Shown: piece by piece, positions 27,755 to 59,628 of the stretch
Position numbering within the stretch: the stretch's first letter is position 1
Layout: every line of letters begins with the position of its first letter
NCBI RefSeq assembly: GCF_029962835.1
Contig: NC_080588.1
Location: 67,916,001-67,980,000, forward strand
Direction of reading: 5' to 3'
Source of the DNA: Magnolia sinica
Lineage: Eukaryota; Streptophyta; Magnoliopsida; Magnoliales; Magnoliaceae
Length of the DNA stretch: 64,000 bases
Notes under the pieces: model-generated
The model's input: the letters and a program-made list of their open reading frames with translations, nothing else
Told to the model about the DNA's origin: nothing
The model's database searches: none
Position numbers and translations under genes: made by a program

Positions 27755-28770
27755 AGTGCGGTGCATAGTCGTGTTAGCCAAGTTCTTAATTAAGTTTATT
27801 CATACAGCAGGTTCGGGAAGCTAAGGTACCTCCCTTTATATCATTACCCCAAACGAATGATCCATCTAGGGTCGTTACTCCTAATTAACCACATACGATA
27901 TGCAAATTGTAAGGCATCACCCCTAATAAAATAGCAGTCGATAAGCAAATTCAAGAGTTTATACTCGCGGTCACTACGGGGAGGCTCGTCACCTCAGCGT
28001 AGGCCGACAGCTCGAATACAGTGTCCCATACCACCATATTCGGCTCACGAGTTTGGGTTGCTCACTGGTCACTACGGGGAGGCTCGTCACCCCAACATAG
28101 GCCGACAGCTCGACCACAGTATCCTATACTACCATGCTCGGCTCATGAGTCTTAGCGGATCGTGGTACCATGGTTAAAATGAGTTTTTACACTGGTGGGG
28201 ATATCTTAGATTCAAGCAGTGGCATCCATACATGGTGAACATATAATAGGTCGATTGGTTTGTTAGGGAAGTTCAATTATTATGGGCACACACTAATGTA
28301 ATTGACATGGAGTGCATAAGCACCCCATGTGGCCTAACCACTGTTGACAATCCTCGTGCGACCCAGATTCGTCGAATTTTCCCAAATGTGACGCGACTAA
28401 TTCGGCCACCCGAACAGAGACTGTTACCGATTGCCTAGACTACGTTGTAGCCCCAATCTTACTTAGATGCAGTAAATAGATACATGTGATAAGCATTTCA
28501 ACATTTGACACACAATCCAAGTAAATACTTCATTTGAGCATTTTATCAAACACCTTTAACATGTTAACAAACACTTGCAATTTATCCATAAATTACGTAG
28601 AGGCAAATATGATTACATGAAATAAATTATACATACGTACAAGGTAATGTAAAATACTATCTTCATACTCGTAATAAGTACAAATCATCAACAATTTCTC
28701 ATTCAGACAATTCAACAAACACTTAAACTACACTATACCAAATACATAGACTAGATTAGTTACAACATAT
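27755..28770 (-). mobile_element. Truncated LTR, 3' portion (first segment)
   Basis: The reverse complement of the outer LTR at about 7300-8245: CCAAGTT...TTTATTCATACAGCAGG, AAGCTAAGGTACCTCC, GGAGGCTCGTCACC and GGCCGACAGCTCGA (twice) match. The last ~740 bases seen in the outer LTR are absent at 27755, so this copy lacks its 3' end. It is interrupted at 28770 by the CACTA element and resumes at 41628. Confidence 0.75.
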
Positions 28771-28789
28771 CACTACCAGAAAAATGGGC

Positions 28790-29090
28790 AAAGGCTACGG
28801 ATAAAAGCCGTAGCTAAAGGTCTATAGCTACGGTTAAAGTCCATAGCACGACCGTAGCCATTTGTGCCATAGCCGTAGGTCTTACAACTATGGCTACGGA
28901 TTTAATCCGTAACTATAGAAACAATAGGTACGGATTATATCCGTAGCAATACTTTCCGTAGCTTAAAGTATATATAGCTACGAATTATATCTGTAGCTAA
29001 AAGTAGAACAAGAACCGTAGTAATAGGCTAAAATTAGAAACAGCTACGGTTTCCAGATAAAGGGCTACGGTAAATAGCCGTAGCTAATGC
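28790..29090. repeat. CACTA subterminal repeats, left
   Basis: About a dozen copies of the 9-base motif TAGCTACGG or its complement, with variants (GGTACGGATT, CTACGAATT), lie within 300 bases of the left end. In CACTA families such arrays bind the transposase. Confidence 0.85.
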
Positions 29091-29334
29091 TTATTTTTTA
29101 TTTAAATAAAATATAATAATGGCATCTCTTTCCATTGTACATGCCTAATGGATCATTCATTCATTCATTCAAATACAATTATTCATTCTAATCAAACTTC
29201 ACAACTAAATTATTCATTCATTCAATCAAACACAATCCTTCATTCATTCAATCAAATACAATCATTCATTTTAATCCATTCACAAAATTGTACAATAACA
29301 ACATAATAGTTATATGTCTATTTAAAGTTTTCAT

Positions 29335-29462
29335 TGACAGCAAGATCCAATGCCTTCTCGCAGCCAAATAGCTTCTCAACAATCGCAAGCGAGAACTCCA
29401 TGGATGTGCCTCTACTAGTTATCAATTTACCATCAACTAATACCCTATTCTCAGCTTCGCTT
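29335..29462 (-). pseudogene. Captured DJ-1/PfpI-family fragment
   Basis: The minus strand reads ENRVLVDGKLITSRGTSMEF then SLAIVEKLFGCEKALDLAV. This is the C-terminal part of the second DJ-1 domain of plant DJ-1 homologues (the LITSxGPGTSMEFALAIVEKL motif). Two or three residues of the usual GPGTS loop are missing. In plants these proteins are linked to oxidative stress or glyoxal metabolism. Only one exon is present, so it cannot act alone. Confidence 0.85.
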
Positions 29463-29767
29463 TAATCTAAAAGCTTACTGCACATGGCTGAAAATAAATT
29501 TCATCATACAAACAAGTAGTCATATGAAAAAGCTATGCCCCGAAACTGAAGAACTAAATTATAGAGAAAGACAACAACGAGATGACATAAAAAAAGAAAG
29601 ACAATACTTGGGAGCATACACTGATCTTCTCATTTCTGAACAAGTAAAATCTGCAACAGCCAAAGACAAAATAAAAATTCAGCTATTCAAAATACCAACT
29701 AATATAGGTATAGCAATACCCACTAAATTTACAAAAATAGACATAGCTGTAGAGTTTAGATACATAC

Positions 29768-30255
29768 ATCCTTCCCCTCAAACTTCTCATCAATGATCTC
29801 AGCAGCTTTCCTTCCAACTTCATTGAGGAATGGGGTCAATACCATTGACAACACAACAATGATTATAAGCAACTTATTCAGCTCAAGTGGCAGTACTCCA
29901 AGCCTGCTCACAAAAGAGAATCATGACACAACATATTTGGAAATGATCAATAATCATGTACACTATCATGAAGATATATAGTGACTAACCTGTTTGCTAG
30001 TAAAAATACTACAAAACCAAACTCACCTCCTTGTGATAGAAGTAGTCTAATTTGTACACTTTCTTAAAATGTTAATCCAACACAAGGACCTATCACAGTT
30101 ATTATAAGTGTCTTGATGACAATTAGACCTGCCAAGAGCGAAAGTACATTTGGCCATTCTCGGAGAAGGAGCTGCATAGCAAAGAGCATAAGTTGTATAG
30201 AGAAAGCCTTGGGAGCAAATTGTAGCAAAATTTCTTCTACACATAAAAAGCACTT
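29768..30255 (-). pseudogene. Captured KEA3-like K+/H+ antiporter exons
   Basis: Two minus-strand exons. The first (30255-29990) reads MQLLLREWPNVLSLLAGLIV, IKTLIITVIGP, then RLLLSQGGEFGFVVFLLANR. After a GT...AG intron (about 29990-29907), the second (to ~29770) reads LGVLPLELNKLLIIIVVLSM then VLTPFLNEVGRKAAEIIDEK. These are neighbouring transmembrane segments of the CPA2 exchanger domain of plant K+ efflux antiporters, closest to the thylakoid type KEA3. A stop interrupts VGLTF*ESV. The intron is kept, so capture was from genomic DNA. Confidence 0.88.
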
Positions 30256-30499
30256 GATGCTATGCTCGTTATACTACAAAATGAAAAATTCATCTTTTTT
30301 TTTTTTTTTTTAAAGACAGGATATAAAAGATGTAGAAACTTAGATGACTACAACGTGGCTTAACTTCCCAGAACCATTTTAGAAAATTTAAACTAGATAA
30401 AGATCACAGAAATGCGGATCTCAAGATTAGAGATGAATTTTGGTGATATTAGAATCGACATCAAACTAATATCTAAGGAAGATGCAAAATTGTGCAATA

Positions 30500-30545
30500 T
30501 ATAAAACCAAAAAAGAAAAACAAAAAAAAAAAAAAAAAAAACCAT
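30500..30545. repeat. A-rich tract
   Basis: An A-rich run of about 40 bases with a few C, inside the CACTA element. It could be an old retroposon tail, but no element is seen beside it. Confidence 0.6.
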
Positions 30546-30956
30546 AACATCTAATAAGACAACCATAACCACCTGATGATTGCAATACAAATGAACATGA
30601 TGAGAAATTTTCAACAGTCCAAATTCAACGAACAAAGCTCACTGATGTAATGTTTCAATGATCTGAACCATTTATATGATGGTTTTCAGAAAGGATGGAG
30701 GATATCCAAAATAAATAAATAAAAATCATAGATGGGACTATTCCAAACCTTTGGTTGTTTAACTCTTTTTCTTACTTGTCCAAGCCTTCGTCTGTGTCAG
30801 CCCTGTAGAGCTAAAGGCCAACTCCAGCCTGGCCCTGGCCCTAGTCCGGCCCATTGCCACCCTATGTCAAGCGAGCATGCATTTTGCTGTAGGTGATCAA
30901 TTCTATGTGTATATCATGCAGCCGACTGTAGGTGATCAGTTCTATGAGCACATCCT

Positions 30957-31199
30957 CTAGTCCACCATTCTCAAAACTTGCTGCAGTCCACCACTTCCAA
31001 AAGAATGTCCACAAGATTGTATCATTGCATCATCCATGAGACTGCCACTAGATACCGCATCCACGTAAAGAAAATAATCAAATGTCCGAATTAATGCAAC
31101 ATCCTCCAGAATTAACAAATTAGCCTTCATGAGATCAGCAGCAGCTTCAACCAAAAGGAGCCCAACAAAATGTTCTTTTCTAATTTTGTAATTGATCAA
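30957..31199 (-). pseudogene. Captured U-box (PUB62-like) fragment
   Basis: The minus strand reads FDYFLYVDAVSSGSLMDDAM then IQSCGHSFGSGGLQQVLRM. The D/PMIQSCGHSFGxxGxQxVxRM string is the start of a U-box E3-ligase domain of the type I recall for plant U-box protein 62 and relatives. Upstream residues (DLMKANLLILEDVALIRT) are open but unassigned. Only the beginning of the domain is present. Family confident, subfamily less so. Confidence 0.65.
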
Positions 31200-31234
31200 C
31201 TAAAAGGAGCCCAACAAGCATATGTATAATCAGG

Positions 31235-31400
31235 AACATTTTGGCACCTGGTGTTGCTGATCCTCATGGCACTTGGCATGACTGCAAGCTTGAGATAAAG
31301 CAAACTTTCTAGATAAAGAACATTTTGGCACTTGTTGTTGCTAATCCTCATGGCACTTGGCATGACTGCAAGCTTGATATAAAGCAATGTTTTTCCAGTC
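31235..31400. repeat. Tandem direct repeat, about 85 bp x 2
   Basis: CATTTTGGCACYTGKTGTTG then CTRATCCTCATGGCACTTGG and CATGACTGCAAGCTTGAKATAAAGCAA appears twice in a row. Non-coding duplication inside the CACTA element. Confidence 0.85.
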
Positions 31401-32194
31401 AACTTGAAATAATGAAAGGTCTACTCTATACACTTTAAGGAATTGCTATCTAACTGTGAATGCTTCCATACATGGGAAAATTTTCAACTAATTAAGAAGA
31501 TTTTTTTTCCTGATTTTTTATGCAAAAATGGGATTTGAAATTGTAGCATTTGCAAAATGATGCAAAAATGAATCATGGTCTAAAGAACAAGAAATGAACC
31601 ATGTTGTTCTCTTTCTTCATGGGAGGTAGACTTCTTTAGATGCAGTTTTATTGCTGATTGTCTTTTCCTTCCGACACCCTAATTAAATTCAAAACCACAA
31701 TTTTTGAAATTTTAACAACTAAAGTTCAATAGAGTGGAAATAATGGAAACTGAAATTAACTTCCCTATCATTGGTACAAAGAGATGAGCTCCAAACTTCA
31801 GTTACTTCGGAAATTAACTTCCGACTACCACCATGATGTTTTTTTAGCCATCCAATCTGTTCATAAGGTCACACAAACCAGGATGAAGGGAAAACACAAA
31901 TATCAGCTTGATCCAAAACTTTGGCGGCCCCAAGATTTAATAAGTACAATTACAAACTACTCTAATCAAACAGCAATAAAGAATAGCAAAAGTTACTAAA
32001 AAAATATCCACATCAAATTCAAATAAGAGAGTAATAAACAAAGTTGCTGCATTCATAGGAGAAAAATGGAGAAAAAAAAAAGCATCACAGAAGCTGATCG
32101 ATTCAACGATCATGCATACAACCTGCTGCATTCAATCGCAGCAATGTGATGATATGCAGTGACCATCTATCTGGTACCATCAAATTCAGATTCC

Positions 32195-32500
32195 GGATTG
32201 TGATGAGTAGATATTATGAGAAGATGGTAATGCCTTTTGGGTTGTCGAATGCATCGACATAGGAGACGTTCTCAGCCAGGAAACAATATGCAAACTTGAG
32301 AGAGTGCCACTTAACAACAAATGCCATGTGGTTTGCGTGTGTATCTGTTTCAGCTTAAAAACAAGATAAATCCAAAGATCATATTGCTTATAACATCAGG
32401 AAAAAAAAAGTGAGCATAGGCTGCCCACCATCAAAACCCTTCAGATGTGTGTAGCCGCACACTTTATAGCCACTTAATGTGGGGTCGATGAAGCCATGGC
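32195..32500. other. Possible captured exons or RT scrap (unassigned)
   Basis: Two readings compete. On the plus strand, 32195-32270 gives RYYEKMVMPFGLSNAST, like the Ty3 reverse-transcriptase MPFGLxNA motif. On the minus strand, 32345-32222 is open and ends in a stop with HMAFVVKWHSLKFAYCFLAE then NVSYVDAFDNPKG, and 32490-32410 gives IDPTLSGYKVCGYTHLKGFD. The minus strand agrees with the other captured fragments, but I do not recognise the protein. Confidence 0.35.
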
Positions 32501-33593
32501 CTTCATTTTCAATTCGGCATCACTCTTCCTACCAAGGGAATTGCCAACGTTCACGAATAGATCTAAAATCACCATCAAATAGAATCTTGTCACGAATAGG
32601 TGTGTGTTTGATGGATCAAAGATCGGCACCTTAAGAACTAGAGCTAGCAATGCGTGGTATCCCCACATGTGTGGAGGCAGTATCTGTGCTCATCTGGCGG
32701 TGCATCTTGCGGGCCTGATCATTCCTTTGGTAATCTCTCATCAGCTAGAATTTCATTACTGGTGGCTTAAGTTCTCAATGGGGACATGCAACACTACCTA
32801 GAAGGTTAGATGAGGGATGTAGTAAAGGAAAGTGGTCGTCAACCACATTAGAGGATTGCAAGGACCAGGTGGGCCCCAAGAGTCTCAATGGCCCTTCAAA
32901 TCTTTAGTTGAGAAGCATTCTCAATGTGGTCTGAATTTATGCATCTTTGGCAGTTGGTGTAGATTTACAATCTATGAATGGGATTTTGGCCGGAGAAGGC
33001 CCATTTCGCTCAGTCAATGCAACAATCATATCAGGAATATCATTGTGTTAAATAAATAAATATATATATAGATGTAAGACTTTGCATGATTAACTTTTCA
33101 ACAGAAATCAGAGTTGTGTTTAAAGGACTTTCCACCAATCACCCATTCAGGCTAGTGGACCAAAACATACCATCCATCATCTGAATTACAAGGTGATATT
33201 CACTTCTTCATGGTTACATTGACACTAACATCATCTGTTGTGATATTTAAAGTATTAATATGATTCCCCAATTCTTGAACTTCAAACCATATGAAGTTCC
33301 TTTTTTGTCATTTCTAATTTTTCACTACCTCTGATTCTCTCTTTAGCAAATCACATTCTTTCGCCTCGAGTTTCCCTCCAAATCTCCAAGTCCTCTCCTA
33401 TCCTTGTGGTTTGACATAGTTGATAATTTCTCTACATCGTACTTGCACAGTACATTTGGTTTTTTTAAAAAAAATATATAAAAAAAACTCAAATTCCTAA
33501 CCAGTTAATTCCAAAGTCTTAGAAGCCCTGACTAGCATCAGCCCAAAACAGAGAGATAGCAGATGTTTCATAAGGCTCTTGTTGCATTGAAGG

Positions 33594-33760
33594 GAGAGAG
33601 AGAGAGATGGCGCTAGTTGCGTTGGAGGGAGAGAGATGGCGTTGGTTGCATTAGAGGGAGAGGCAAGAGAGGCTGAGAGAGCTGACGTGCGTTTTGCAAC
33701 GACGTTTGGAGTTGGTCGCGATGGAGGAAGATGTGAGAGAGAGAGGGGGGGAAATGAGAG
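33594..33760. repeat. GAGA-rich region
   Basis: Repeated GAGAGAGAGATGGCG(C/T)T(A/G)GTTG units, about three copies, merge with GA-rich sequence. It resembles a GA-rich 5' leader of a captured gene read on the minus strand, but no ORF is assignable. Confidence 0.55.
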
Positions 33761-35699
33761 AGTACTTCATGAGAGGTATGCGTGTGAGTGAGGCTGCGTG
33801 TACGAAAGATCTATATCTCACTTCTATTACTCGCGTAATGCGCGCTCTCTCTCCAACGAGAATTCCGCCCAAATCCCAACCGTTCCAAACATCCAACGGT
33901 TATGGATGAGGTGCGCATGTATGGCCATGCGAACCAGTGCGTAGCTGAGCATTCCTCTATATATATATATATAAGGCAACACATTTGCATTGAATTAATA
34001 TGGTGACCTAAACAAAAAACAAAAAATCCAACATTTTTAAACCAAATGCATATAAAACCAAAATTAATCCCATCTAGAAAATGAATAAAAATGTTAAAGC
34101 AACAAATCAAATGCTATAAAATTTACAAAATTACCACCAAACCCATCTCTAAGAAAAAAATCATTTCAAACTCACCAACATGGATGTAGCCATGCTCATT
34201 GTGAATAAAATGTTCATAACTTCATGGACTCCTATGCTTTCCATTATATTAAATTACATTAGGTGTGTGATTTACCAAAGACAACCTCCCATGTCACGCC
34301 CCAAACTCAGAAACCGGGCTCACAAAATTCCCGATCGCCGAATCCGGCGCCGACAGCCTCCGTAGAACCTCATTCTCGGTTCTCAGCGCCCATTCGCCAG
34401 GTTCCGATCCTGGGATGCTACAAGGAGAATTTTCAACATCAGTTTGATTCGTAATAAGCATAACCAAAGGCATAACCCACAACAACAACCAAAAACTCCA
34501 TCACATTTCCACTATAATCAAAAACTTTACAAGTACAAAGAGCATAAGGGAAATACAATGAAGATAGACCAAAAGCTCCAAAAAGATCAGCTACGCGCCC
34601 AAGCCTCAGCGCTGCTGTGATCCAACGTCACCTGCACGCAACGGTCGTGCATAAGCTTATAGAAAGCTTAGAGGGTGGTAATGTAGCTATGTAGTATCAG
34701 AATAATGCAGATCATGCTGATGAATGCCAAGAATACCATTAGCCATACCAAGGCCATACTGTGTAAAGAATGATGTCGGCCATACCAAGGCCATGCAATG
34801 CGAAATGCAACTCAAGCATGCAAATCCTCATCTAAGTCCACATATCAATACAGCTCAAAATCTGGAATATCACCAGGGTCTAGTACACTCCAAGCCAGAT
34901 TGCCGCCCCATCGCGCGCAATAAGGTGAGTGGAAAAGACCTCACTATCCGCCTGCCAATATCGGGCTCGGCTCGTCAATAGCGGACCCATTCCTCGAGCT
35001 GGTCAGACTCAGCCTAGCATTGCCCCCTACTCTCGGGTGGGTAAGGCCGCACCCCCTTCCAACCGACCACAACACAATGGAAAGCGCAACCGTCTGATAA
35101 TCGGCACTCAGCGCTCATGCATTCACTCGGTCTAGACGTTAGAGCAACCTCCTGGTACCATAAGGGTTTAGGGACTTTCACCCAGGAATATCTATCGCAC
35201 CCCATGTAGAACAGTATTTCCGGTATCCAATCTTGCCAACCATGATACGTCTGTGGAGGCTACGGCCCTGATGTCGCTAGGGCGTACAGTAACCATATCA
35301 CACAATGCGAATGCATGAATCACACTATTCAGTCATGCAGCAATCTTACGCGTATCGTGCGCTCATGTAGGGCGACACCCCCTGTACGGGAGCCCCTAAA
35401 CAATCTGCCCGAAGGCGTATGCTATGATCAGTCATTTCTCATATCAAGCATACGTATGATGCATATGATCATGAATCATGGAACTAAACATGTTATATAG
35501 GATGGATGATGTGCATAACGAAGACGGGCCTAGACGGCCTACACATTACACATACGAGCCTAACGATAGGCCCTAGGGAAAGTCATAATGCGGACATTTA
35601 ACCAACACTATACTTGCAATGGGGACGTCAAACCGCCATTGCTCCCCAGGTACAGCCCGATGTAAACATCATTACATAACCCATGTTGGGATCGTACAT

Positions 35700-36070
35700 T
35701 GCAATGGACCTTAGGTACATCCCATTGGGCCTTAAATACGTCAAATGGACCATATCATATGGGCCTTATATTCATCAAGTGGGCCACATCATTGGGCCAC
35801 ACCAATGGGCCTTATGTGCATTGCAATGGACCATGACCCGTGGGCCTTAGAATGCATCAAATGGGCCTAATCTTATGGGCCTTATGTGTATCAAATGGGC
35901 CTCGCCAATTGGGCCCCCATATGTACATCAAATGGGCCTCAACCCATTAGCCCCATTACATTTTAATGGGCCTCGACCCATGGGCCCCTAATGCATTAAA
36001 TGGGCCTCGACCCATGGGCCTTGCATATACATCAAAGTGGGCCTCAACCATGGGCTACAAGTACACTGAG
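35700..36070. repeat. ATGGGCC-type short tandem repeats
   Basis: About 20 copies of 15-30 base units with the core (A)TGGGCCTCGACCCATGGGCC or CAAATGGGCCT are arranged irregularly. Each carries short inverted GGGCC/GGCCC pairs. Non-coding, within the nested LTR-like element. Confidence 0.8.
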
Positions 36071-36103
36071 GTGGGCCCCCACCAATATTATATTAAACAT
36101 GAT

Positions 36104-36225
36104 ATAATATATAATATATATATATATACATAATACATATGATATTATATATGATATAATATTATATATATATAAACACACACGCACACACCACACACGC
36201 ATGCACCCACCCACACACGCATGCA
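36104..36225. repeat. (AT)n / (CA)n microsatellites
   Basis: An AT-rich run (36104-36172) is followed by an ACACAC/GCATGCAC run (36174-36230). Confidence 0.85.
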
Positions 36226-38312
36226 CACACATCCCAGTGGGCTCCACCGTCCGGCTGGACGGTGGCTTTAAAACACACACACCACTGTGGGCTCCATGTG
36301 GGGCCCACCATAATGTTTAGATGCCATCCAACCCGCTGATAAGGTCACATGGGCCCAGTTGAAGGGTGAAAACAAATCTCACCCTGATCCAAAACTTCTG
36401 TGGACCCCAAAAGGATTTCAAAAGTAGAAGTCTAATCCCACTGTTTCCTACGGTGTGGGCCACCTGAGTCTTGGATCAAGCTGATTTTTGGGGTGGGCCC
36501 ACGTCAGGTAGTGGCCCACCCTATGAACGGTTTAGATAGCATATAAACATCAAGGTGGGGCCCACAGCTACAGCCGTGGGTGGCTGTACGTCCGGGCTGG
36601 GGCGCTGGCAGCGCTGCTGCGCTTCTGACATAGCAGCAGCGGCTGCTATAATGCTTGTTTTTTTTATTTTTATTTTTTTTGATTTTTGATTTTCTAAGGA
36701 TTTTACAGGTAGGGTCCACATCCAGTGAATCCACTCCGTCCAGTAGCCCTCTATGGCTCAAGACAAGCAAACCAAGCCCAATATTGGGCATATTTCAACG
36801 TATAAAAGATTTAGGGACGATTTCAATGGTGCAAACGACCATTTGCTACGGTATGGCCCACCAGGACCGCAAGTTGGCACCCTATCTTGGTTCAACGCCT
36901 GAAATGGGATCAAGAAACGAATGGACGGCGTGGATTGAATATATGCATCAAGATGGAGCCTACACAAGTAGACCACCTCATTGGCTTGAAACCAAGCTAA
37001 CTTTTTTGCACTTTCCAACGGAAACGTCCAGCGTCAGTGGACGCTGGACTTTGTAAATACATTAGAGGTGGGCCCTGCTTAGGTGGGCCACCTCATTGAG
37101 GATGGTGTGGATACTAAGCACAAAGTGGGCCCCACTTGTAGATGGCTTGAGTAGGATGTATGCTTCAGGGTGGGATCCATCCAAGTGGGCCATACAAGCA
37201 TGATATAATCACACATAAAAAAATGAAATAGAGAGGGAGAGAGAGAGAGGTGGGACCCGCGTGATGGAGGGACCCCGGCACTATGGGCCCTCCCTTGCAC
37301 TAAATCATACATCCAGTGGGTCCCATTACATGTGGATCCATGAAATCGAAATCCAACGGTGGAGATCCCTTCTCCACTAAAATAGACGGTCTAGATGACC
37401 CTAAGCATGCAAGGAAGTAAACATCATGATGGAGTCCATGGAGAATGGCCCCATCATGGAGTGATCATGATGATCCAAGTGGGCCATCGGCCACATCTTT
37501 GGGTCCAAAGTGAGATCCAAACCATTGATCGGTTGGTCTCACTTGGCCCATCATAAAAATACCAAAATCTACCCTATCAAAACACCCACCACTTGATCCT
37601 CTTGCTCCCTTGGCTTCCTTAGCTCCTTGTGCTTCTCTTTGATGGAGGAAGATGAGAAATGGATGGTTGAGATGAGAGATCTAAGGATAGAAGGGTGGGA
37701 CACACATGAGCATTTTTCTCACCATGGGAGGGCTTGGAGAAGTTCATACGTATGGTGCTCTCTTGCTTGGATTGGATTTGAAAAAATGAATAAGAGAGAG
37801 AGTTGTAAAGGGAGAGAGAGAGGGAGTGATGGGTGATGGAGTGATGGATGGGAGAGAGGGATGGGTGTAAGAAGCCTTTTTTTGACTTTTTTGGCAAAAG
37901 GTGTAAGAGGAGTTATGGGTTGTAGGAGACTTTTTGACTTTTGGGGCTTGCTTGGGAAAGGGTGAAAGGTGATGTGTACTTGAAATGATGGGATTGATGG
38001 GATTGATTGATTGATGTGACACCTTGTAGAAATTCTCTCGGGATTCGCACGCGCGGCGTTTTCTCGCACCGAACGCTGGCCCACAACTCCCAACCAGAGC
38101 ATCGCATCAGCGCGAGAGTCGCGGCATCGGAACCGCGGCGACGACGCGGTCGCTAAGGTACGAGTCCTGGGTTGACTCGACTCGGGTTGACGGCACGAGA
38201 ATCCAGGTCGCGCGCAATTACAGGTTAAAGGTCGAAGGTTGCCGGAATTCGACCGGGAAGACCGCGGAAGCCTATGGAACGGTACGGTCTAGGATACGGG
38301 GCTTACATCCCA

Positions 38313-40260
38313 ACAGTTTCATCTTCTCATTACCAGAAAATCATTTAGTAGAAATTTAAAAAGCACATATAAGCCAATTTGAAGTCTATATTAAGATTGC
38401 ATTTGAACAGGTTTTGGGAGGACAGGCAGATTGTTTAGCAGCCTTTACAACTTATCAGTTCAGAAAGATTAACAGCTATGAGACAGTCAATAACCAAATT
38501 GTTTGGACTCCTATTTCAAAAGAAACATGATAGGTTATGAGAAGGAGCTCATTACTCTGTTGAGGGTTAGATCTCTCAAGACAGGACAAAATGATATAGA
38601 AATGGTTGTCTTCTGGGAATTTTTCATAAAATCCATCTATGGAAAATTGGATGGAAGGGGATACCCTGCATTAAAAAGGCATCATGTTTGGAAATGCAAG
38701 GAAAGCAGATTTGGCAATAAAGACGACGATTCCTTTTTCGTTAAAGGGAACCAAAATCGCAATTCCACTTGTTGACGTGAATGTGATAGAAATTTCTGGA
38801 TGAAATCAATTCCACTGGACTACGATTTTAAGATTCCCAAACACATACAATATTGGTGCAGCCAAACGGGTATTAAAAAATAAAAACAAATAAAAAAAGA
38901 GGGCAAAACAAATAAATAGAATAAATTAAACATGTTGCATCTTACTCATAGTCATATCCATCATGTCATATGCAATATGGGTATGCCAGTGGACTTGAAG
39001 AATCTGGGGCATTTGTTAATTGTTAGTTTCTCTACCCCTATGGTTTTTTATTTTTTTTATTTTTTATTGGGTGAATCAGATTTTGTTGCCCTATAGTTGA
39101 TACTACTTGATTCATCCTCTTTACCGGTTAGTTGTAAATCAACATTTTCTCTCTTTAGAAGAATATTAGAGTTTGTTGAGGAGAGTTTACTTGTTGTTTT
39201 GAATAAGAAAAGTTAGAAGGCAGTTATAAACAGAATTTGGTTTATTTTCTGCAACTTTTTGATTCAAATCCTGTATTTTTCTTGTATGAGGTTTTGAGCT
39301 GCACCAATGTTGCAAGTGAGGTTTAAAATCAGTGTATTGGGTATCGTATTGTTCACCATCACCTATTAACTGAATTAGAAGACTTTCACTTATTGAAGCC
39401 TGGATTGTTTGCAATGTGAATTTCCAATTGTCTGGAATAGTCAAAAGTTCACCACTGTTAGCATGTACTGCATGGGGCCTGATAGGACCAGAAATTTAAA
39501 CGGTTGGATTGAAATATGCACGTGCATGAGCAGATTTATCAAACTCGAGCAGAGTACCATACAATTCATGAAGGGAAGATAGTAAGACAGTGATAACAGA
39601 CAGTAAAATTCATATGTAAGAAGAAACTTGAAGAACCAAAGAGACTGAGCACAACACCAGCAGGCAGGAAACCTTCAGCCTTATACTAGAGTCAACAGAA
39701 TTATCCCATCTCCAATACTCCTACCATGAAAAAAACAAAGCTACAAAAACTTCATTCTAATTAGTGTGTGTTGCTACGAGCCATATTTATGGAGGTGACT
39801 GCACAGTTTCCTTTTCGCTTCACAAAACTACACTTTCCAAGGGCAACAAATAAAGCCTTCTAATATAGCTGGACCTTCTAAGATACTGTAGTAATCAAAT
39901 AAGGAAATGTTCATAATAGAGTTTCTAAAATAAAATCATGCATATAAAAACTACTTAGATAGGAATTCTTACCACATGTGATTGAGTGGACCCCATTTGG
40001 TCATTTTCTTGTGCATACATATGAAACATGGGTGTCTGGGTGAGGTGCGGTTGCATCACACACCATTCCACTGTTTTTGGGGCAACACAGAAAAATGGAA
40101 AGTGCATTAACCAGTCCCCTTTCCTTCCCAAAATCAATATTCAAAACAGTTCATCCAGGGAATTATTCAAATAAATGTTTGGAATCCTTCTATACATTTG
40201 CACCTAATAGAATATGAAATTTTTTTTAAAAAAAAAGAAGAAAAAAAAAAGAGGAAACAG
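38313..40260. other. CACTA interior without recognisable genes
   Basis: Between the nested LTR and the CAP-H2 exons there are open stretches of 60-90 codons (38503-38775 plus; 39187-39444 minus; 39955-40137 minus) with ordinary amino-acid composition but no motif I know. Given the captured exons on both sides, some may be further captured exons. They cannot be assigned from sequence alone. Confidence 0.4.
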
Positions 40261-40269
40261 AACAACAGT

Positions 40270-40674
40270 CAGAATTCAAACGTCTTCTGAGAAATGAACT
40301 CCAACGCATGCAAAACTAAAGAATATAGATATTCCACTTTCCGACTATACACCTGAATCGAACCTTGAATAAGCAGAGCAGCTACAAAATAGGAAAATGA
40401 AAATTTTCAAAAGAACCCCCTTGACGGAATGAGAAATCATGGAAAAAGCAATGAGAACAAAGGGGATCTGAATAAGAATGGGACCTTCGGCAAAATTCGC
40501 GGAGGGGTGGCCGCCTTCATCTTCAGCCGTGATTTCTCTGAAACAGATCTTGAGAAGATAGTCATCAAGGTTCTTGGCGAGATCAACGACCCAGATCAAT
40601 TTAGGGTCGCGATTGGGCTACAGGATGCGGAAACTAGCGCCGTTGGCACTGCAGTGCTCTTCTTTTTCTGTCAT
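40270..40674 (-). pseudogene. Captured condensin-II subunit CAP-H2 exons 1-2
   Basis: The minus strand starts MTEKEEHCSANGASFRIL, has a stop where Gln would be (CAG to TAG), and goes on PNRDPKLIWVVDLAKNLDDY then LLKICFREITAEDEGG...ANFAE. A 104-bp GT-AG intron follows, then [20 protein letters not shown] then [12 protein letters not shown]. This is the conserved N-terminus of plant CAP-H2, the kleisin-partner subunit of condensin II. The join NFAE-A-ALLIQG is exact across the intron. The GA/CT tract at 40864-40910 sits where the 5' UTR would be, so 5' flanking sequence was probably captured too. Confidence 0.88.
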
Positions 40675-40858
40675 CTTTCGTGGGACGGCTACCGATGCGA
40701 TTCCATGGACTGTTAGTTGAATGTCATTTCTAAAAGAAACCCTAGATATGGAATGGAGTGGGAGAAACGAGAGAGCTGGAATTGGGCAATCAGGGTTTTG
40801 AAAATGGAACCCTAGAAAAATGCGGGAGAGAGACAGGGAGATATGGTTGAAATGGGGC

Positions 40859-40863
<5 letters not shown>

Positions 40864-40910
<47 letters not shown>
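40864..40910. repeat. (GA)n microsatellite
   Basis: About 47 bases of perfect GA, just upstream (minus strand) of the captured CAP-H2 start. CT-rich leaders are common in plant genes. Confidence 0.95.
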
Positions 40911-40916
<6 letters not shown>

Positions 40917-41054
40917 CGCGGGAGATCGAGAGTGAGAGAGAAAGGGACGGACGTGGGAGGGAATGGGGTTTTTCCCCAAAGAGGGGAGGGAAAGAATGAA
41001 ACATTTCGTGAGAGGGGGAAAAGAAAAAGGAAAGCGCGATTTTCGCATTTTGTA

Positions 41055-41600
41055 CCTGCTACGGCCCTGCTACGATCTAAAACCGTAGCTAAAAGCCCCT
41101 TGGCCGTAGCCATCGTGTAGTCCATTGTAGCCCCTCCGCGTTCACACGTCTGGTGGGATCTTAATGAACGAATTTTTCAAGGGCTTTGTGGGGTCCATCT
41201 TGATGTATTTGATATATCCACTCTGTCCATTAATTTTGTAATTTTTTTTATAGAAAATGACCCCAACATCTAGGGAAATCAAAGTCCAATTGAACCACAC
41301 CATCAATCAATAGTAGGTATTAATCTCCACTGTTTCCTAACGTGTGGTCCACTTGAGTGTTCAATCTACTTCCTTTTTTGGGCTCTTACCTTAACATTCT
41401 CTTTTAAAACGGATAGACGTATTAGATGGAGCACATAAATTTTAATGGGCCTCGTAGAGTCCCTTATAGGGCTATCCCATGTTGGATGAACGGGTGAAGG
41501 TGGTAGCTTTTAGCTACGGTTTAGGTTTTTTTAGCTACGGTTTTAAGCCGTAGCAATATAGCTACGGTTTATATCCGTAGCTAAAACATAGCATGGTCCG
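41055..41600. repeat. CACTA subterminal repeats, right, split by a MITE-like segment
   Basis: TAGCTACGG/CCGTAGC motifs occur at 41055-41125 and again at 41515-41590. Between them (about 41180-41480) lies a copy of the common GTGGGGTCCA...TCCACTCTGTCCAT...TGGGCCTCGTAGAG short repeat, which appears to have inserted in the subterminal region. Confidence 0.75.
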
Positions 41601-41627
41601 TAACCTTTGGTCATTTTTTTGGTAGTG

Positions 41628-43827
41628 TATATTTTAGCAATTCCTTATACCGAGAGAGCAACGTTTATGTGACGATAATTAATCCCTAGATCAGTAACCA
41701 TAGCAAGCTCAAATCACATTCAAATGCTCATTCAAACATTTCAACAAACACATGAAATGCGCCTTTTATCTAACACAGTTCATACATGTATATTACACAA
41801 GAATCGACGTATCTACAACAACATGGCAGCAATCAAGTCAGACATAAATCATTAACTGACATTAAAAGCATTGAAAATCATAACTTAAACGTTTATAGTC
41901 CGCACCTTTCGTCGGAATACTCGATTTGGACACGGTTCAAACACTACGTTCCCGAAAATGGAACATCGGGCACCCAAACAATGAAATAGGTTAGTTATTT
42001 CGTCGATTACTCTATTTGGATCTCTAAATCAAGATTAAGGTTAGGATTTCTTACCCAAATCGTATCTAAGATGGATCATGTAGCGAAACAGGAGAGGTGA
42101 TTCAGTACGTGGAGTAGCGGGAAAGAATCACAGCAATGATCTCCCTATTTCTCTCTTCTCTCCTTACTCTTTTCTCTTCTTTTCTCTCTTCTCTCTCCTA
42201 GGGTTAGAGAAATTCGTATGGAATAGAAATGGGGTGGTTTAAGGGCCTTATATAGGCCCAGAACTAATGCAAATGGCCCCAGGGCCATGGTAAACTTGGT
42301 TTCTATCCAAAGGGCGACTATTTTTGACAAACAGGGCCCATTGGAAGGTCGATAACTCACATACATCACAGGGTAAGTTCCTTGACAATGGATCTATGCC
42401 ATGATGTGAATTTTGGTGCGGTCAAATTAATTGATCGACCGTGGAGGACCCGTGTCAGATTAACGGTTGAACTTGCTCGATCGGAGCCACAGTTATATGG
42501 ATCTGTGCAGGGAAATTTTCTTTTTCCATGGGCGAAGTTTGGTCAGAAACTGACAGTCTGAAATCCTCAATTTCGTGCGTAAGCAAATGGCCCAATTCAC
42601 TTAAGTTTCAATACGTTTTCTAAAGATATTTGCGTTTCTCATACACTTCACTCAGGGCTCAAGTTGTGCGTTTTTGGATACTATCTGGGCTCGATTTTCC
42701 CAATGATTGTCAAGCCAAATAGGACGAACATAATCTTATAGTTTCGCGGTCATCAGACCTTCGACTTGCGGTTTAGGTCCAATATGGAGTTTCAATGTAC
42801 TCCCGAGAGCGATAGGCTCTTGGGATTTTTCTTAAGTTTTTAAGGGACATTGAGTTAATGGTATTAATGATTTTGGGTCTTTCCATTTGTGGAAATGGTG
42901 GTTCGAGTTAAATCCACCAATTATTTAGTTTACTACTTAACTAAATTTCGCCCTAATTATGACAGAATAAGGTCTTAGGGTAGTTCTATATCCTTTTTTT
43001 TATACTTTTAGTTAGTATATTATTTTAATTATTTTTTTAATAGTTCATCATCAAGTATACTTTATCTCCACCAAATTTCATTAAATTTCGTATTCTAAAA
43101 AAATTTTAAAATTTCTGAAAATAGCAGTTGTCCGAACTAATAATTTTTAGACAGTTGTCACATCAACTTAGATTTAACTATATTAAAATTTTTATTTTAT
43201 TTTTTTACTTATTTTTATATGAAACTAGACTTATCAATCTTCATTCTGGCTTTTGAATCACCTAAATTGGAATTATATTGAGAGAGATATGACTTTTTGA
43301 AGTTAGCCTAAAAATACAGAAATTTTAGCGAGGGTCCACCGAAATTCGGTGCACTGGCGGCGCCGCCAACCGGGTGGTGGCGCGGCGCCCCTCTGCTGTT
43401 CTTGGTGGTGATTCCGCCACTCGATTTTTGAAATGAGTATATCTTACAAATCGGAATGAGTTATTTGATGACTAATATATGATTTTGGGGAAGGAGAAGC
43501 TAAGCTATCCAAATAACCTAGTTATTTTTTGAGATTCCATCAGGTTATTGGTCTAAAGTCTATTTTATTTATATTTTTACTATTTATAGTAAATTTTAGT
43601 TTAATTATTATTCTTCATCATTTAAACTTTAGAATTTATGTCGAATATGAAAGTACTTAGAAAAATTTAAAGAATAAGGTGGTGAAATGTGAGATTTTTT
43701 AAGGAGATGGGTTAGAAAGGGAATTTGAGACTTTGGGATTGAGTTTTGAAAAGTCGATAAGGTGTTATGATAGACACATTGTTCAAGGACGTCTAACTCT
43801 AAGTTGGCAAAATTCTGGGACGTTATA
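41628..43827 (-). mobile_element. Truncated LTR, 5' portion (second segment)
   Basis: This continues the minus-strand LTR interrupted at 28770. Reverse-complement matches to the outer LTR: TTTATAGTCCGCA (41890), the TATA region CTTATATAGG (42247-42256) with the GGCCCCAGGGCCAT block, and a long match from about 42560 to 42830 to 1555-1790 (TGAAACTCCATAT, GATGACCGCGAAACTATA). The 5' end is GGGACGTTATA at 43827, a mutated form of the TGTAACGTCCC start. The first ~1 kb (42850-43800) is AT-rich and diverged. Confidence 0.75.
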
Positions 43828-45253: not shown

Positions 45254-45338
45254 CTAAGAACTTCCTCTCTTCCCTTCTAAGTGTGTGGTGTGGAGTGTAG
45301 ATAAGGTGGGCGCACCCTTCAATTGCATTTGGTAAGCC

Positions 45339-46721
45339 ATGGCTGATGGAATGCATGTGGTGATGCTTCCATGGCTGGCTTTTGGTCACATGATCCCATT
45401 CCTTCAACTCTCCATAGCCTTAGCCAAAGCTGGCATCCGAATCTCCTTCCTCACCACTCAAAAAAACATCCAAAGGCTACCCAAGATCCCACAACATCTA
45501 ACGGCTCTGATCAATCTGGTGGAGCTTCCCTTGCCGAAGGTGGACGGCCTACCTGAAGGCGCTGAGGCCACTGTCGATATCCTCCACGGGAGTGACGAGT
45601 ACTTGAAGAAGGCCTACGATCTCTGCTACCCCGCCTTCAAGAAGTTCATTACCGAAGAATCGCCGGACTGGATAGTCCATGATATCTTCCCCTGTTGGGT
45701 GGGCAATGTTGCAAGTGAATTCAACATCCCTCGTGTCTTCTTCTCTATTTATTCAGCTACCGTAAATGCATTCTTTGGGCCGGACGCAGACGGCCTAAAG
45801 AAAATGTGGCCATCACCAGAGAGTCTGGCGTCCCCGCCTGAGTGGTTTGAATTCGAGTCGTCCGTTGCCTTTCCAACCCATGAGACTGCTGGTCTCTACT
45901 GTGGGTTTTTCAGCCCAGATGCATCGGGCTTCTCGGGTTTAGATCGTTTAGTGCTAGCACTCCAAGGGTGTTCGGCAATGGCAATTCGGAGTTGCAATGA
46001 GTTCCAAGGGGAGTACTTGGGCTTACTCAAGAAATTACGCAAGAGACCGGTCATTCCAGTCGGATTACTTCCACCAACGCCGCCAGAGAAGAGAGAAACG
46101 ACCGACCCCAAGTGGGCAAACACACTCAAATGGCTCAATGAACAGCCCGATAGATCAGTGGTGTTTGTTTGCTTTGGAAGTGAGTGTAAACTGAGCAGAA
46201 ATCAAGTGTTTGAGATTGCACTTGGGCTTCAACTCTCCAATTTGCCATTTCTATGGGCCCTCAGGACTCCCATATGGGCAACCAACGACATGGATACCCT
46301 TCCGCCGGGATTCGAGAGCCAGATCGGCAGTCGTGGGGTCGTCTATATGGGTTGGGCCCCTCAGTTGGAGATACTGTCCCACCCTTCCATCGGTGGATCT
46401 TTGTTTCACTCCGGGTGGGCGTCCATCATCGAGACCGTCCATTATGGGCATGCTCTCATCGTATTGCCGCTTGCGAACGTCCATTCATTGGATGCGAGGA
46501 TGTTGGTGGACAAGGGTCTGGCTATAAAAGTTGAGGTAAACGACGATGGGTCCTTCCACAGGGATGCAGTCGCTCGGTCGCTGAGGCTGGCCATGGTCGA
46601 AGAGGAAGGAGAAAGGTTTAGGCTTAAATCGATAGAAATGAAGGCCATTTTCAGTGATCAGACACTCCATGAAAACTATATGAATGAATTTATCAACTTC
46701 CTCAAAAGCTCCAAGACATAA
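45339..46721 (+). CDS. UGT91-like family-1 UDP-glycosyltransferase, 460 aa (intact)
   Basis: It transfers a sugar from a UDP-sugar to a small molecule in the cytosol; UGT91-type enzymes usually add a second sugar to flavonoid, triterpene or diterpene glycosides. The N-terminal acceptor domain has PWLAFGHMIPFLQLS with catalytic His17, NIQRLPKIP, and PDWIVHD with the candidate partner Asp115. The C-terminal donor domain has SVVFVCFGSE (273-282) and the 44-residue PSPG box from Trp339 (WAPQLEILSHPS) through HSGWASIIE to Val381-His382. The canonical last two residues, Asp-Gln, contact the sugar; here they are Val-His. The ORF is intronless, has a good start context (AAGCCATGGCT), full family length and a stop at 46719. 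It is the only open copy of a three-copy array. Function and acceptor are not known. Confidence 0.93.
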   Translation: MADGMHVVMLPWLAFGHMIPFLQLSIALAKAGIRISFLTTQKNIQRLPKIPQHLTALINLVELPLPKVDGLPEGAEATVDILHGSDEYLKKAYDLCYPAFKKFITEESPDWIVHDIFPCWVGNVASEFNIPRVFFSIYSATVNAFFGPDADGLKKMWPSPESLASPPEWFEFESSVAFPTHETAGLYCGFFSPDASGFSGLDRLVLALQGCSAMAIRSCNEFQGEYLGLLKKLRKRPVIPVGLLPPTPPEKRETTDPKWANTLKWLNEQPDRSVVFVCFGSECKLSRNQVFEIALGLQLSNLPFLWALRTPIWATNDMDTLPPGFESQIGSRGVVYMGWAPQLEILSHPSIGGSLFHSGWASIIETVHYGHALIVLPLANVHSLDARMLVDKGLAIKVEVNDDGSFHRDAVARSLRLAMVEEEGERFRLKSIEMKAIFSDQTLHENYMNEFINFLKSSKT

Positions 46722-55989: not shown

Positions 55990-56077
55990 CTAAGAACTTC
56001 CTCTCTTCCCTTCTAAGTGTGTGGTGTGGAGTGTAGAGAAGGTGGGCCCCACCCATCAATGGCGCTTGTTAAGCCAC

Positions 56078-56350
56078 ATGGCTGATGGCATGCATGTGGT
56101 CATGCTTCCATGGCTGGCCTTTCGCCATATGATCCCATTCCTTCAGCTCTCCATAGCCTTAGCCAAAGCTGGAATCCGAATCTCCTTCATCACCACTCAA
56201 AAAAACATCCAAAGGCTACCCAAGATCCCACAACATCTAACGGCTCTGATCAATCTGGTGGAGCTTCCCTTGCCGGCGGTAGATAGACTGCCTGAAGGCG
56301 CTGAGGCAACTGTCGATATCCTCCAAGGAAGCGACGAGTACTTAAAGAAT
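56078..56350 (+). pseudogene. UGT91-like pseudogene 2, 5' fragment
   Basis: The first ~90 codons match gene 1 closely, from MADGMHVVMLPWLAF to GSDEYLK. Gly16, the residue just before catalytic His17, is Arg (FRH instead of FGH). After DEYLKN the frame runs into sequence that belongs 1.7 kb downstream of gene 1 (matching from about 48466), and stops at 56437. The rest of the acceptor domain and the entire donor domain are gone. The joint has the shared bases GGCC-ACGAT, so a deletion at short homology is likely. Not functional as a glycosyltransferase. Confidence 0.93.
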
Positions 56351-58770
56351 GTGGGCCACGATCTGAAAATTTTACCTGAAGTTTTTTTAATCTTTGGGAT
56401 TTCAACACTGAGGTCACAGATTAAAGTGCCCATGTGATGTGCATGTGTGTGTATTCTTTAAAAAAAATATTGCCCAGGAAGTTCCAGCCGTGAAAAGCCA
56501 CCATTATGTTTTTGAGAAATTGGCTCCGTTCATCTGTTTTGTAAGCTCATTTTACGACTTCAGACAAAAAGCGAGAAGGATCCAATACTCAAGTGGGCCT
56601 CTCCAACGGAAAAGGTTGGTAAGGAAATTCCTACAGTTAAAACCTCCTAGGAGTTGACAGTGATGTTTACATGCTATCCATAACGTTTTTAACGCCATTC
56701 TTATGTTTACATGCCATCCCTAACGTTTTTAACGCCATTCTTACTGCAATGAACTGAAAACACAAATATTAGCTTAATTTAAAATTTCTGTAGCCCCACG
56801 AAATATTTTATTTGTGCACATTCCATCCTTAATTTTTCAACCTACTTGGGTATTGATGGATTTCTCACAAACATCACGGTGGGTCCCACTTACGTTCAGC
56901 GAAGTAACTTCCTCGTAAGGCTTTGTAGGAAATCTGTGTCCAGTTATTTTGTCAAAAATGTATAAAAGGCCGGATATCACCTGTACCACATGTGGCCCTT
57001 ATGTACATGAGCTTTATGGCACACGTGTGCACGCGCTGCTAATTACTTTACCAGAAAATTCTTTGATTTTTAATCGTCCGGTGGTCGCATGATGAAACAG
57101 GCTAACATTCGTTTCCATATTGCAAAAATAATTTTTAAAGTTTAATTTGAATTAATTATATGCCAGGTTTACAATTTTATAAGTGCATGTGTATCATCTA
57201 CAACACTGGCCCGAGTATTAAAGCTTCTGGTAAGAAAGTTCGAATTGGGTAAGGATATATACGTTGGCTAATTCCACGCGGGTATGGATCGTATGCACCT
57301 ACATCATTCATACTTGCAGATATGAAAAGCTATAAAGATCTGAGCTGCTGATAAGGCTGGGAATAACGTGGGGACAGATAGAAATTTATTTCTATACTTT
57401 TGTCAAGCTGAGTTGTGAAATGGAATGACTTTTATGTCATAAAATATACTTGATGGAAAGCTCATATCACCGTCATGTATCACATAATGGCCACTTCAGA
57501 GCTTGTGTGTAGATGTGTACACTTTCACACGCTTATGAAATTAGCAAACTTTGAAGGAGCATTAGATTTTGTTTTACTTTCTATATTATTTTTGGGGGGA
57601 AATGTGATTTAGCCATTACTATTATGCTCGAAGTAGGGCTGAAAGTCAGGCGGGTTCAACCCAACCAGCTCGACATTGGGTTGGGCTTGGGTAGGATGTA
57701 TCAGGTTCTGTCTTAGGCTTGGGCTATACAAACACCAATCCGATTAAACTTGAGTCAGGCTCGGGTTGCCCAACCCAGCCCAAACCCGATCGATATATAA
57801 GTTACTTATAAATTATAATTAAGTGTGGATCGTTTGTGTTGAAGGCATGGAAAATTTCAGTACTGTTGGGCCTCATTGGTCCACGTCATTTCATTTCCAG
57901 TGACTCAAGCTAATAAAATACATCGGATTTCTCCATCCCAAGTAGATTGCATGCTACACAACATGGCTTTTAAAAGAGTAGCTGTCCTATATTTTAACTT
58001 GTTTGTTTAGAAAAATAAACAAAGTTCTTTACGATAACTAATTACATATATAATTAATGAAATCATAAATACAAAAAATAAAACATGTATTGAAATATAA
58101 TATATTAATAGAATAACAAAATTATTAGCATGTATCTACCCAACCAACCGGATAAAGAATTTTTTTTTTTTTTACACATGCACACACCCCAACATACACA
58201 CTCACGCCTGTAGCGGGATCTCACCACCTATGGATACTCAAACCCTTACCAGGTGTTGAAACTCCTGAGAGTCTACCACCGGAGCAAGAGTAAAGATCCA
58301 CCAACCCAATGAAGGGTTGGGTTGAATTAGGGTTGAGTTATAAGAACCTTGGGCTGGGCTTGGGTTGAGAATACCGAACTCGAGAGGTTGGGTTAGGTTG
58401 GATTAGGGTTTAGGTATATGATCGGTTGAGCACCAACCCAACTTAACCTGCTCCACTTTCAGGCATATCTCAAAGTTCCTGACCTCAAAAACTAACTTTT
58501 TCCCTTGGTAAATTGTCAATATCCTTTAATTGTTTCTGAGTAGTCATGATCATCTTCACGGATGTTCCTCTGAATCCAGCTATTTTGATGTTTGGATTCA
58601 TAATGTGTTTAGTTAAATTCAAGTTGATGTTTGGATTAATAATGTGTTTAGTTAAATTCAAGTTGAATATGACTATGGCACACCTAGTATATATACCCAC
58701 ACATGCATATATAAATTCCGACCGTTTGTAATATGCGTGGCTACATGTTCGAATTAAATAACAATACATT
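56350..58770 (+). repeat. Duplicated 3' block, unit B
   Basis: The copy of 48466-52260. It lacks both MITEs of unit A, has a 48-bp local duplication at about 56660-56745 (TGTTTACATGCYATCCMTAA then CGTTTTTAACGCC twice), and a duplicated 40-base segment at 58585-58665 (TGATGTTTGGATTMATAATG then TGTTTAGTTAAATTCAAGTTGA twice). Confidence 0.85.
57634..58464. mobile_element. hAT-like non-autonomous element, unit B copy
   Basis: The paralogue of 50504-51442. It starts TAGGGCTGAAAGTCAGGCGG and ends CTGCTCCACTTTCAGG, with a shorter CCCAACCC array. It lacks part of the sequence around 50640-50740 of unit A. Confidence 0.6.
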
Positions 58771-59539: not shown

Positions 59540-59628
59540 CCAAAGTATTTCCTCTCTTCCCTTTGAACTGTGTGGCGTAGACTATAGAGAAGGTGGGCCC
59601 CACCCATCAACGGCGTTTGTTAAGCCAC

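What the first reader, a model, noticed from the sequence alone, without database searches (positions are those of the whole stretch)
28771..41627. A CACTA element carrying pieces of at least four unrelated genes, all in one orientation
Clean ends (CACTACCA...TGGTAGTG, TAT duplication) enclose fragments of DJ-1 (29335-29462), KEA-type antiporter (29768-30255), a U-box protein (30957-31199) and CAP-H2 (40270-40674). All lie on the minus strand, two with intact GT-AG introns. Gene capture by CACTA elements is known, but several co-oriented captures in one 8.8 kb element could yield a chimeric transcript starting at the CAP-H2 end.
Basis: partly seen in the sequence, partly recalled or inferred. 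Interest (0 to 1): 0.85.

Follow-up and report, generated by a model that had tools for sequence, protein, structure and literature searches.

The report
Jumping gene carrying borrowed gene pieces
This is a plant CACTA transposon that picked up pieces of at least five ordinary genes and spread as many copies; such gene-collecting transposons are known, but here donor genes and some of the joins can be read directly, and the copies look silenced and broken rather than active as a new gene.

Summary
The observation largely holds. Window 28771-41627 is one CACTA element with paired ends, a TAT duplication and 18 subterminal GCTACGG repeats. A later 4,016-bp LTR-like insert lies inside, leaving about 8.8 kb. 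Donor or donor-like loci for all four named pieces exist in the same genome: DJ-1 (85%), KEA-type antiporter (94%), U-box-like gene (94%, only 138 bp), CAP-H2 (89%). A fifth piece, a BAHD acyltransferase fragment at 32468-33049, lies in the opposite orientation, so 'all in one orientation' fails. Related copies carry different subsets: DJ-1 alone, DJ-1+KEA with U-box only, with CAP-H2 only, or with both. The KEA piece joins at an imperfect 4-7 base microhomology; the CAP-H2 piece joins within a (GA)n repeat that both the CAP-H2 gene and copies without the piece possess. This favours capture by template switching plus exchange between copies. The copies show CHG C-to-T decay that the donors lack, and 7 of 11 CAP-H2 pieces have a premature stop: a silenced, decaying family rather than a working chimeric gene, though no RNA data could be searched. 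Closest precedents are soybean Tgm-Express1 and Pack-CACTAs: a new member of a known kind.

The parts
28771..41627 (.). whole non-autonomous CACTA element (12,857 bp with nested insert, about 8.8 kb without)
   Evidence: paired termini and duplication; colinear copy L070 with both ends
28768..28770 (.). target site duplication TAT, left copy (right copy at 41628-41630)
28771..29100 (.). left subterminal region, 10 GCTACGG/CCGTAGC repeats
29340..29490 (-). DJ-1 C-terminal exon fragment; donor-like gene at C3:121.5439 Mb (85%, 6-bp deletion)
29743..30293 (-). KEA/Kef-type antiporter fragment with a GT-AG intron; donor C16:65307110-65307664 (93.7%); left junction at an imperfect microhomology, right end beside a T-run
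30962..31099 (-). U-box/RING-like exon with short intron flanks; donor-like gene C13:71560564-71560700 (94%)
32062..33921 (+). module with a BAHD acyltransferase fragment (homology 32468-33049) in the opposite orientation; related sequence also at C13:63.05 Mb and, in part, four further loci, so perhaps brought in by another mobile element
34292..38307 (.). later nested insertion, TG...CA ends, 5-bp duplication TCCCA; LTR-retrotransposon-like, possibly a solo LTR; absent from the six other copies read there
38943..39604 (.). unidentified dispersed module; among the places scored, found in the 11 CAP-H2-bearing copies and at three further loci (plus short partial matches at four more)
   Evidence: 40 of 108 candidates scored
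39605..40903 (-). CAP-H2 (condensin II) fragment: part of intron 2, exon 2, intron 1, exon 1 with ATG, 5' leader; donor C14:12.2873-12.2885 Mb (89% over 1,308 columns)
40863..40911 (.). (GA)n repeat where the CAP-H2 piece joins the right end; two copies without CAP-H2 have their own (GA)n here, and so does the CAP-H2 gene
41040..41627 (.). right subterminal region, 8 GCTACGG/CCGTAGC repeats

Best explanation
A non-autonomous Pack-CACTA family. Shown: elements with a DJ-1 exon are numerous; a subset also carries a KEA fragment; within that subset some copies carry a U-box-like exon, some a CAP-H2 5' end joined to a dispersed 660-bp piece, and some both plus a BAHD-bearing module. Inferred: pieces were copied in during repair or replication of the element by template switching at short shared sequences and simple repeats; sets of pieces were then mixed by recombination between copies; a transposase acting in trans spread the products. 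Inferred from mutation patterns: the copies were methylated and silenced, and have decayed; they most likely encode no working chimeric protein.
For: Donor or donor-like loci for four pieces (KEA identity). Module table: 5 copies with U-box and CAP-H2, 6 with CAP-H2 without U-box, 8 with U-box without CAP-H2. DJ-1-only copies L025-L028 diverge at 29746, where KEA homology starts, and share ATAG/AATAGAT with the KEA gene there. Two copies without CAP-H2 have their own (GA)n at the CAP-H2 join; the CAP-H2 leader also has (GA)n. On the left 1.7 kb, CAP-H2 carriers fall in three places among non-carriers. C-to-T in copies: CAP-H2 87/610 CG, 129/1,021 CHG, 81/3,669 CHH; KEA 50/285, 49/435, 88/2,459. 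Donors at copy-consensus CHG sites: 3/89 and 0/31. 7 of 11 CAP-H2 exon-1 pieces have a stop; exon 1 is the segment most diverged among copies.
Against: No transposase was sought in the genome. Today's copies differ from the proposed KEA microhomology at two bases. Several tree nodes are weak, and the module pattern could be partly loss. C-to-T counts treat shared changes as independent. The CAP-H2 donor shows CG change about as high as the copies (5/55 against 64/608), so for CAP-H2 only CHG separates copies from donor; KEA donor counts are small. Exon 2 differs less from the donor than intron 2 does (0.040 against 0.084), as constraint on the donor would also give. Four of 11 CAP-H2 exon-1 pieces are open.
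Confidence: 0.8

Rival explanations
1. The element is a transcribed chimeric gene: the captured CAP-H2 leader and first exons start a transcript that runs through the co-oriented U-box, KEA and DJ-1 exons.
For: The CAP-H2 piece holds leader, ATG and two exons; its exon-1 splice donor GT is intact in the window copy; the KEA intron keeps GT-AG; in soybean Tgm-Express1 captured pieces are spliced into transcripts of the host gene (PMC1947982, abstract and passages).
Against: Stop at codon 19 here and stops in 7 of 11 copies; KEA frame stops; 4-kb insert in between; opposite BAHD piece; CHG decay.
Confidence: 0.1
2. Capture by fusion of neighbouring elements: two elements inserted near one donor gene moved together and lost their inner ends (Pack-CACTA model described in PMC13317346 and PMC8903248, passages read), repeated at each donor.
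For: Left ends cluster: 4 pairs within 200 kb among 40 scored places, 0.17 expected; but the C12 pair shares its 3' flank and may be a segmental duplication.
Against: The CAP-H2 join lies in a repeat present in both element and donor, the KEA join at a microhomology; this model requires neither. No other part of the element was found in the 6-kb CAP-H2 stretch or, short simple-repeat matches aside, the 4-kb KEA stretch; old remnants could have gone.
Confidence: 0.25
3. The pieces are separate insertions of other mobile elements into one CACTA element, each with its own duplication.
For: The BAHD module occurs elsewhere, once between inverted repeats; the 660-bp module is at three further loci; the 4-kb insert has its own duplication.
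Against: KEA and CAP-H2 pieces match gene loci, begin or end inside introns or the leader, and show no flanking duplication at the joins that could be read.
Confidence: 0.05

Closest known systems
Tgm-Express1, soybean CACTA element (PMC1947982; abstract and passages read)
   Same: CACTA element with exon and intron pieces of five unrelated genes
   Different: 5.7 kb, inside an intron of an expressed gene, with demonstrated chimeric transcripts; here about 8.8 kb, no expression data, and partial copies show steps of the assembly
Pack-CACTA / Pack-TYPE elements of Arabidopsis, rice and maize (PMC8903248, passages and section 'Genes captured' read; PMC13317346, passages read)
   Same: non-autonomous elements with terminal inverted repeats and captured coding DNA; [quoted passage not shown]
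   Different: the joins readable here suggest switching at microhomology and at a shared microsatellite
Pack-TIRs of animals, gap-filling and FoSTeST models (PMC8277862, passages read)
   Same: capture by template switching with microhomology at joins; multicopy elements spread by transposition
   Different: animal elements; here several donors combined in one plant element

Membership tests
CACTA (En/Spm) superfamily | termini beginning CACTA in inverted orientation | tested here: met
CACTA (En/Spm) superfamily | 3-bp target site duplication | tested here: met
   window TAT/TAT; of 8 copies read at both ends 5 identical, 1 with one mismatch, 2 not matching
CACTA (En/Spm) superfamily | short subterminal repeats in both orientations at both ends | tested here: met
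   18 GCTACGG/CCGTAGC near the ends, 0 in the other stretches counted
CACTA (En/Spm) superfamily | mobilised by a CACTA transposase | not tested
   no transposase family at significant E-value among the selected element frames given to Pfam; the genome was not searched for one
Pack-CACTA / Pack-TYPE | non-autonomous element with coding DNA from host genes | tested here: met
   donor or donor-like loci for DJ-1, KEA, U-box-like, CAP-H2; BAHD gene L085
Pack-CACTA / Pack-TYPE | multicopy with the captured DNA | tested here: met
   window included: 11 copies with CAP-H2, 21 with KEA, 13 with U-box and 5 with BAHD
Tgm-Express1-like expressed exon shuffler | chimeric spliced transcripts | not testable with these tools
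   no RNA data

The most novel reading that the evidence does not exclude
Recombination and template switching between co-resident Pack-CACTA copies act as a combinatorial exon shuffler: sets of pieces captured separately (a U-box line and a CAP-H2 line) are brought together in one element, including a donor gene's leader and start, so that new promoter-exon chains arise faster than by serial capture; some of the four copies with an open CAP-H2 exon 1 could be transcribed.
Probability: 0.15. Interest if true: 0.7.

Novelty: new member of a known kind. Interest (0 to 1): 0.42.

Why it matters
How CACTA elements acquire gene pieces is not settled. Here elements without a given piece, donor genes and elements with the piece coexist in one assembly, so joins can be read base by base and the order of captures tested. 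The CAP-H2 join lies in a microsatellite present in both element and gene, and sets of captured pieces appear to be exchanged between copies. It also warns annotators: fragments of DJ-1, CAP-H2 and others in tens of copies or more can pass for gene families.

Tried and rejected
Rejected: four separate insertions (no duplications at the joins that could be read; KEA and CAP-H2 donors are gene loci). Rejected: co-orientation as a signal (4 of 4, p = 0.125; with BAHD 4 of 5, p = 0.375; adding Leo1 and TLD-like pieces of related DJ-1-only elements 6 of 7, p = 0.125). Gene pieces were not sought exhaustively: only selected frames of both strands went to Pfam. The TLD assignment is weak (E 0.0026, below its cut-off). 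Conservation of exons as a sign of function among copies was not seen. PDB sequence searches with the KEA and U-box pieces gave nothing useful. 'U-box' rests on a weak RING/U-box match of the donor exon and recalled resemblance. The 660-bp module was not identified. In the module table two copies had neither U-box nor CAP-H2, but one of them (C12:68.55 Mb) has U-box sequence some 16 kb further on, beyond my distance limit, so only C19:24.63 Mb remains, and its KEA piece is cut short. Tree of the left 1.7 kb: 20 sequences; 6 of 8 U-box-only copies and one of the two C12 copies were used. Distances used 15 of 21 KEA copies and all 11 CAP-H2 copies. The paper search for a Magnolia CACTA report (the genus is my guess from 19 large contigs and 1.84 Gb) and those listed no title on this family; only those searches bear on that.

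Full report
The window lies at C16:67,916,001-67,980,000 of an unnamed 1.84-Gb genome in 127 contigs. The element at 28771-41627 has the termini, TAT duplication and subterminal repeats of a CACTA transposon. Its left end matches at all 40 places scored (of 5,115 first-look candidates) and its right end at all 40 scored (of 2,706); 15 of the 40 left ends have a listed right end on the same strand within 14 kb, 19 within 30 kb, lower bounds because both lists are capped. Of 8 copies read at both ends, 5 have identical 3-bp duplications, one has a mismatch, two do not match.

Inside lies a 4,016-bp insert, 34292-38307, with TG...CA ends and a 5-bp duplication TCCCA. It is absent from the six other copies read across that site: L070, L071, L072, L080, L087, L088. 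Without it the element is about 8.8 kb.

Donors. CAP-H2: the DNA search (21 of 21 candidates scored) found 11 element copies, one further full-length match at C14:12.287 Mb and nine short exon-2 matches elsewhere; the Pfam search (41 of 41) found both CAP-H2 exons outside the family only at C14:12.287 Mb. That locus matches 39605-40903 at 89% over an alignment with gaps and, at the 50-bit limit used, no other part of the element. KEA: of 22 places (22 of 22 scored) 21 are element copies; C16:65.307 Mb is not among the listed left-end or DJ-1 places, matches 29743-30293 at 93.7%, and its 4-kb stretch holds nothing else of the element but short simple-repeat matches. Frames beside it match Na_H_Exchanger and TrkA_N and KefB/KefC models far below their cut-offs, as expected of a KEA gene. 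DJ-1: of six loci fetched from the Pfam list, C3:121.5439 Mb matches 29340-29490 at 85%; the others showed no match there. Its exon scores above the DJ-1 cut-off (checked). U-box-like: C13:71.5606 Mb matches 30962-31099 at 94%, a paralogue on C8 at 89% over 93 bp. BAHD: 32468-33049 on the plus strand matches a BAHD frame at C14:16.17 Mb at 79-82% (PF02458, 3e-52). The surrounding module is 91.5% identical to C13:63.05 Mb, where inverted repeats flank it in the piece read, and part of it recurs at four more loci (18 of 18 candidates scored).

Assembly. DJ-1-only elements L025-L028 follow the window up to 29746 and then differ. Two carry other pieces on the DJ-1 strand: Leo1 (1e-10) in L025 and a weak TLD-like one in L026. 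At 29746 the DJ-1-only elements and the KEA gene share AATAGAT; the window reads CATAGCT, two differences. Typing by modules: A, U-box, BAHD and CAP-H2, 5 copies (two lack the DJ-1 exon); B, CAP-H2 without U-box, 6; C, U-box without CAP-H2, 8; two were typed as having neither, of which one probably has a distant U-box. Two type-C copies show the site without CAP-H2: homology to about 38945, some 70 bp, the element's own (GA)n, then the common right end. The CAP-H2 leader has (GA)n too, and the joined copies switch within it. The KEA right end lies beside a T-run and the BAHD right end beside a TA-run; these were noticed afterwards and not tested. A tree of the left 1.7 kb (20 sequences) groups the four A copies (1.0) and five B copies (0.99), these next to two C copies (0.92, 0.99), with the sixth B copy beside another C copy (0.93). 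As the CAP-H2 piece reaches the same right-hand repeat and left boundary in the copies compared, exchange between copies is the simplest reading; loss remains possible.

State. K80 distances among copies are 0.03-0.11 for CAP-H2 and 0.02-0.08 for KEA, donor to copies 0.07-0.12 and 0.055-0.075 (11 of 11 and 15 of 21 copies). C-to-T changes in copies: CAP-H2 87 of 610 CG, 129 of 1,021 CHG, 81 of 3,669 CHH; KEA 50 of 285, 49 of 435, 88 of 2,459. In the donors, at sites where the copies' consensus has C: CAP-H2 5 of 55 CG, 3 of 89 CHG, 11 of 366 CHH; KEA 0 of 12, 0 of 31, 2 of 170. So the CHG excess is special to the copies; the CG excess is not, for CAP-H2. CHG methylation as a mark of silenced plant transposons is established knowledge, not shown here. 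Seven of 11 CAP-H2 exon-1 pieces carry stops, the window's at codon 19, and one of the seven has lost the ATG. Among copies exon 1 is the most diverged segment (0.105) and intron 2 the least (0.042); against the donor exon 2 is the least diverged (0.040). The KEA frame of the window stops too.

Literature. Tgm-Express1 of soybean, a CACTA element with five unrelated gene fragments spliced into transcripts of its host gene (PMC1947982, abstract and passages), is a direct precedent. [quoted passage not shown] Template switching with microhomology is proposed for animal Pack-TIRs (PMC8277862, passages). The finding is a new member of a known kind whose assembly steps are unusually legible.

Noticed in passing
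window 45336-46721, 55994-56437, 59581-61011: Three similar plant UDP-glycosyltransferase-like frames (PF00201 in the first; the others by likeness): one open 461-aa frame, one short, one split by a stop; the element ends about 3.7 kb before the first.
   Followed up: partly
L041-L048 (C9:33.90, C4:75.00, C8:30.73, C85, C9:80.80, C1:49.89, C4:76.86, C6:77.51 Mb), also C4:77.49 Mb: A different dispersed sequence carries CAP-H2 exon 2 with some flanking intron (74-78% to window 40125-40377 in the eight loci read), perhaps a second capture of the same gene.
   Followed up: no
C11:17.51, C9:23.90, C15:67.41, C18:49.26, C10:60.02, C7:19.22, C6:47.40, C8:81.62 Mb: Eight scattered matches to the N-terminal part of DJ-1 (profile about 2-67) with no other DJ-1 match listed beside them, perhaps another dispersed capture.
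   Followed up: no
L025, L026: Related DJ-1-only elements carry other gene pieces: Leo1 (E 1e-10) and a weak TLD-like one, on the same strand as DJ-1.
   Followed up: partly
C16:67.739-67.798 Mb and C4:81.47-81.53 Mb: Clusters of related elements within tens of kb, suggesting local hopping or local duplication.
   Followed up: partly
window 31234-31387: 84-bp tandem repeat that has more copies in element copy L071 than in the window.
   Followed up: no
window 623-1063: Reverse transcriptase fragment (PF00078).
   Followed up: no
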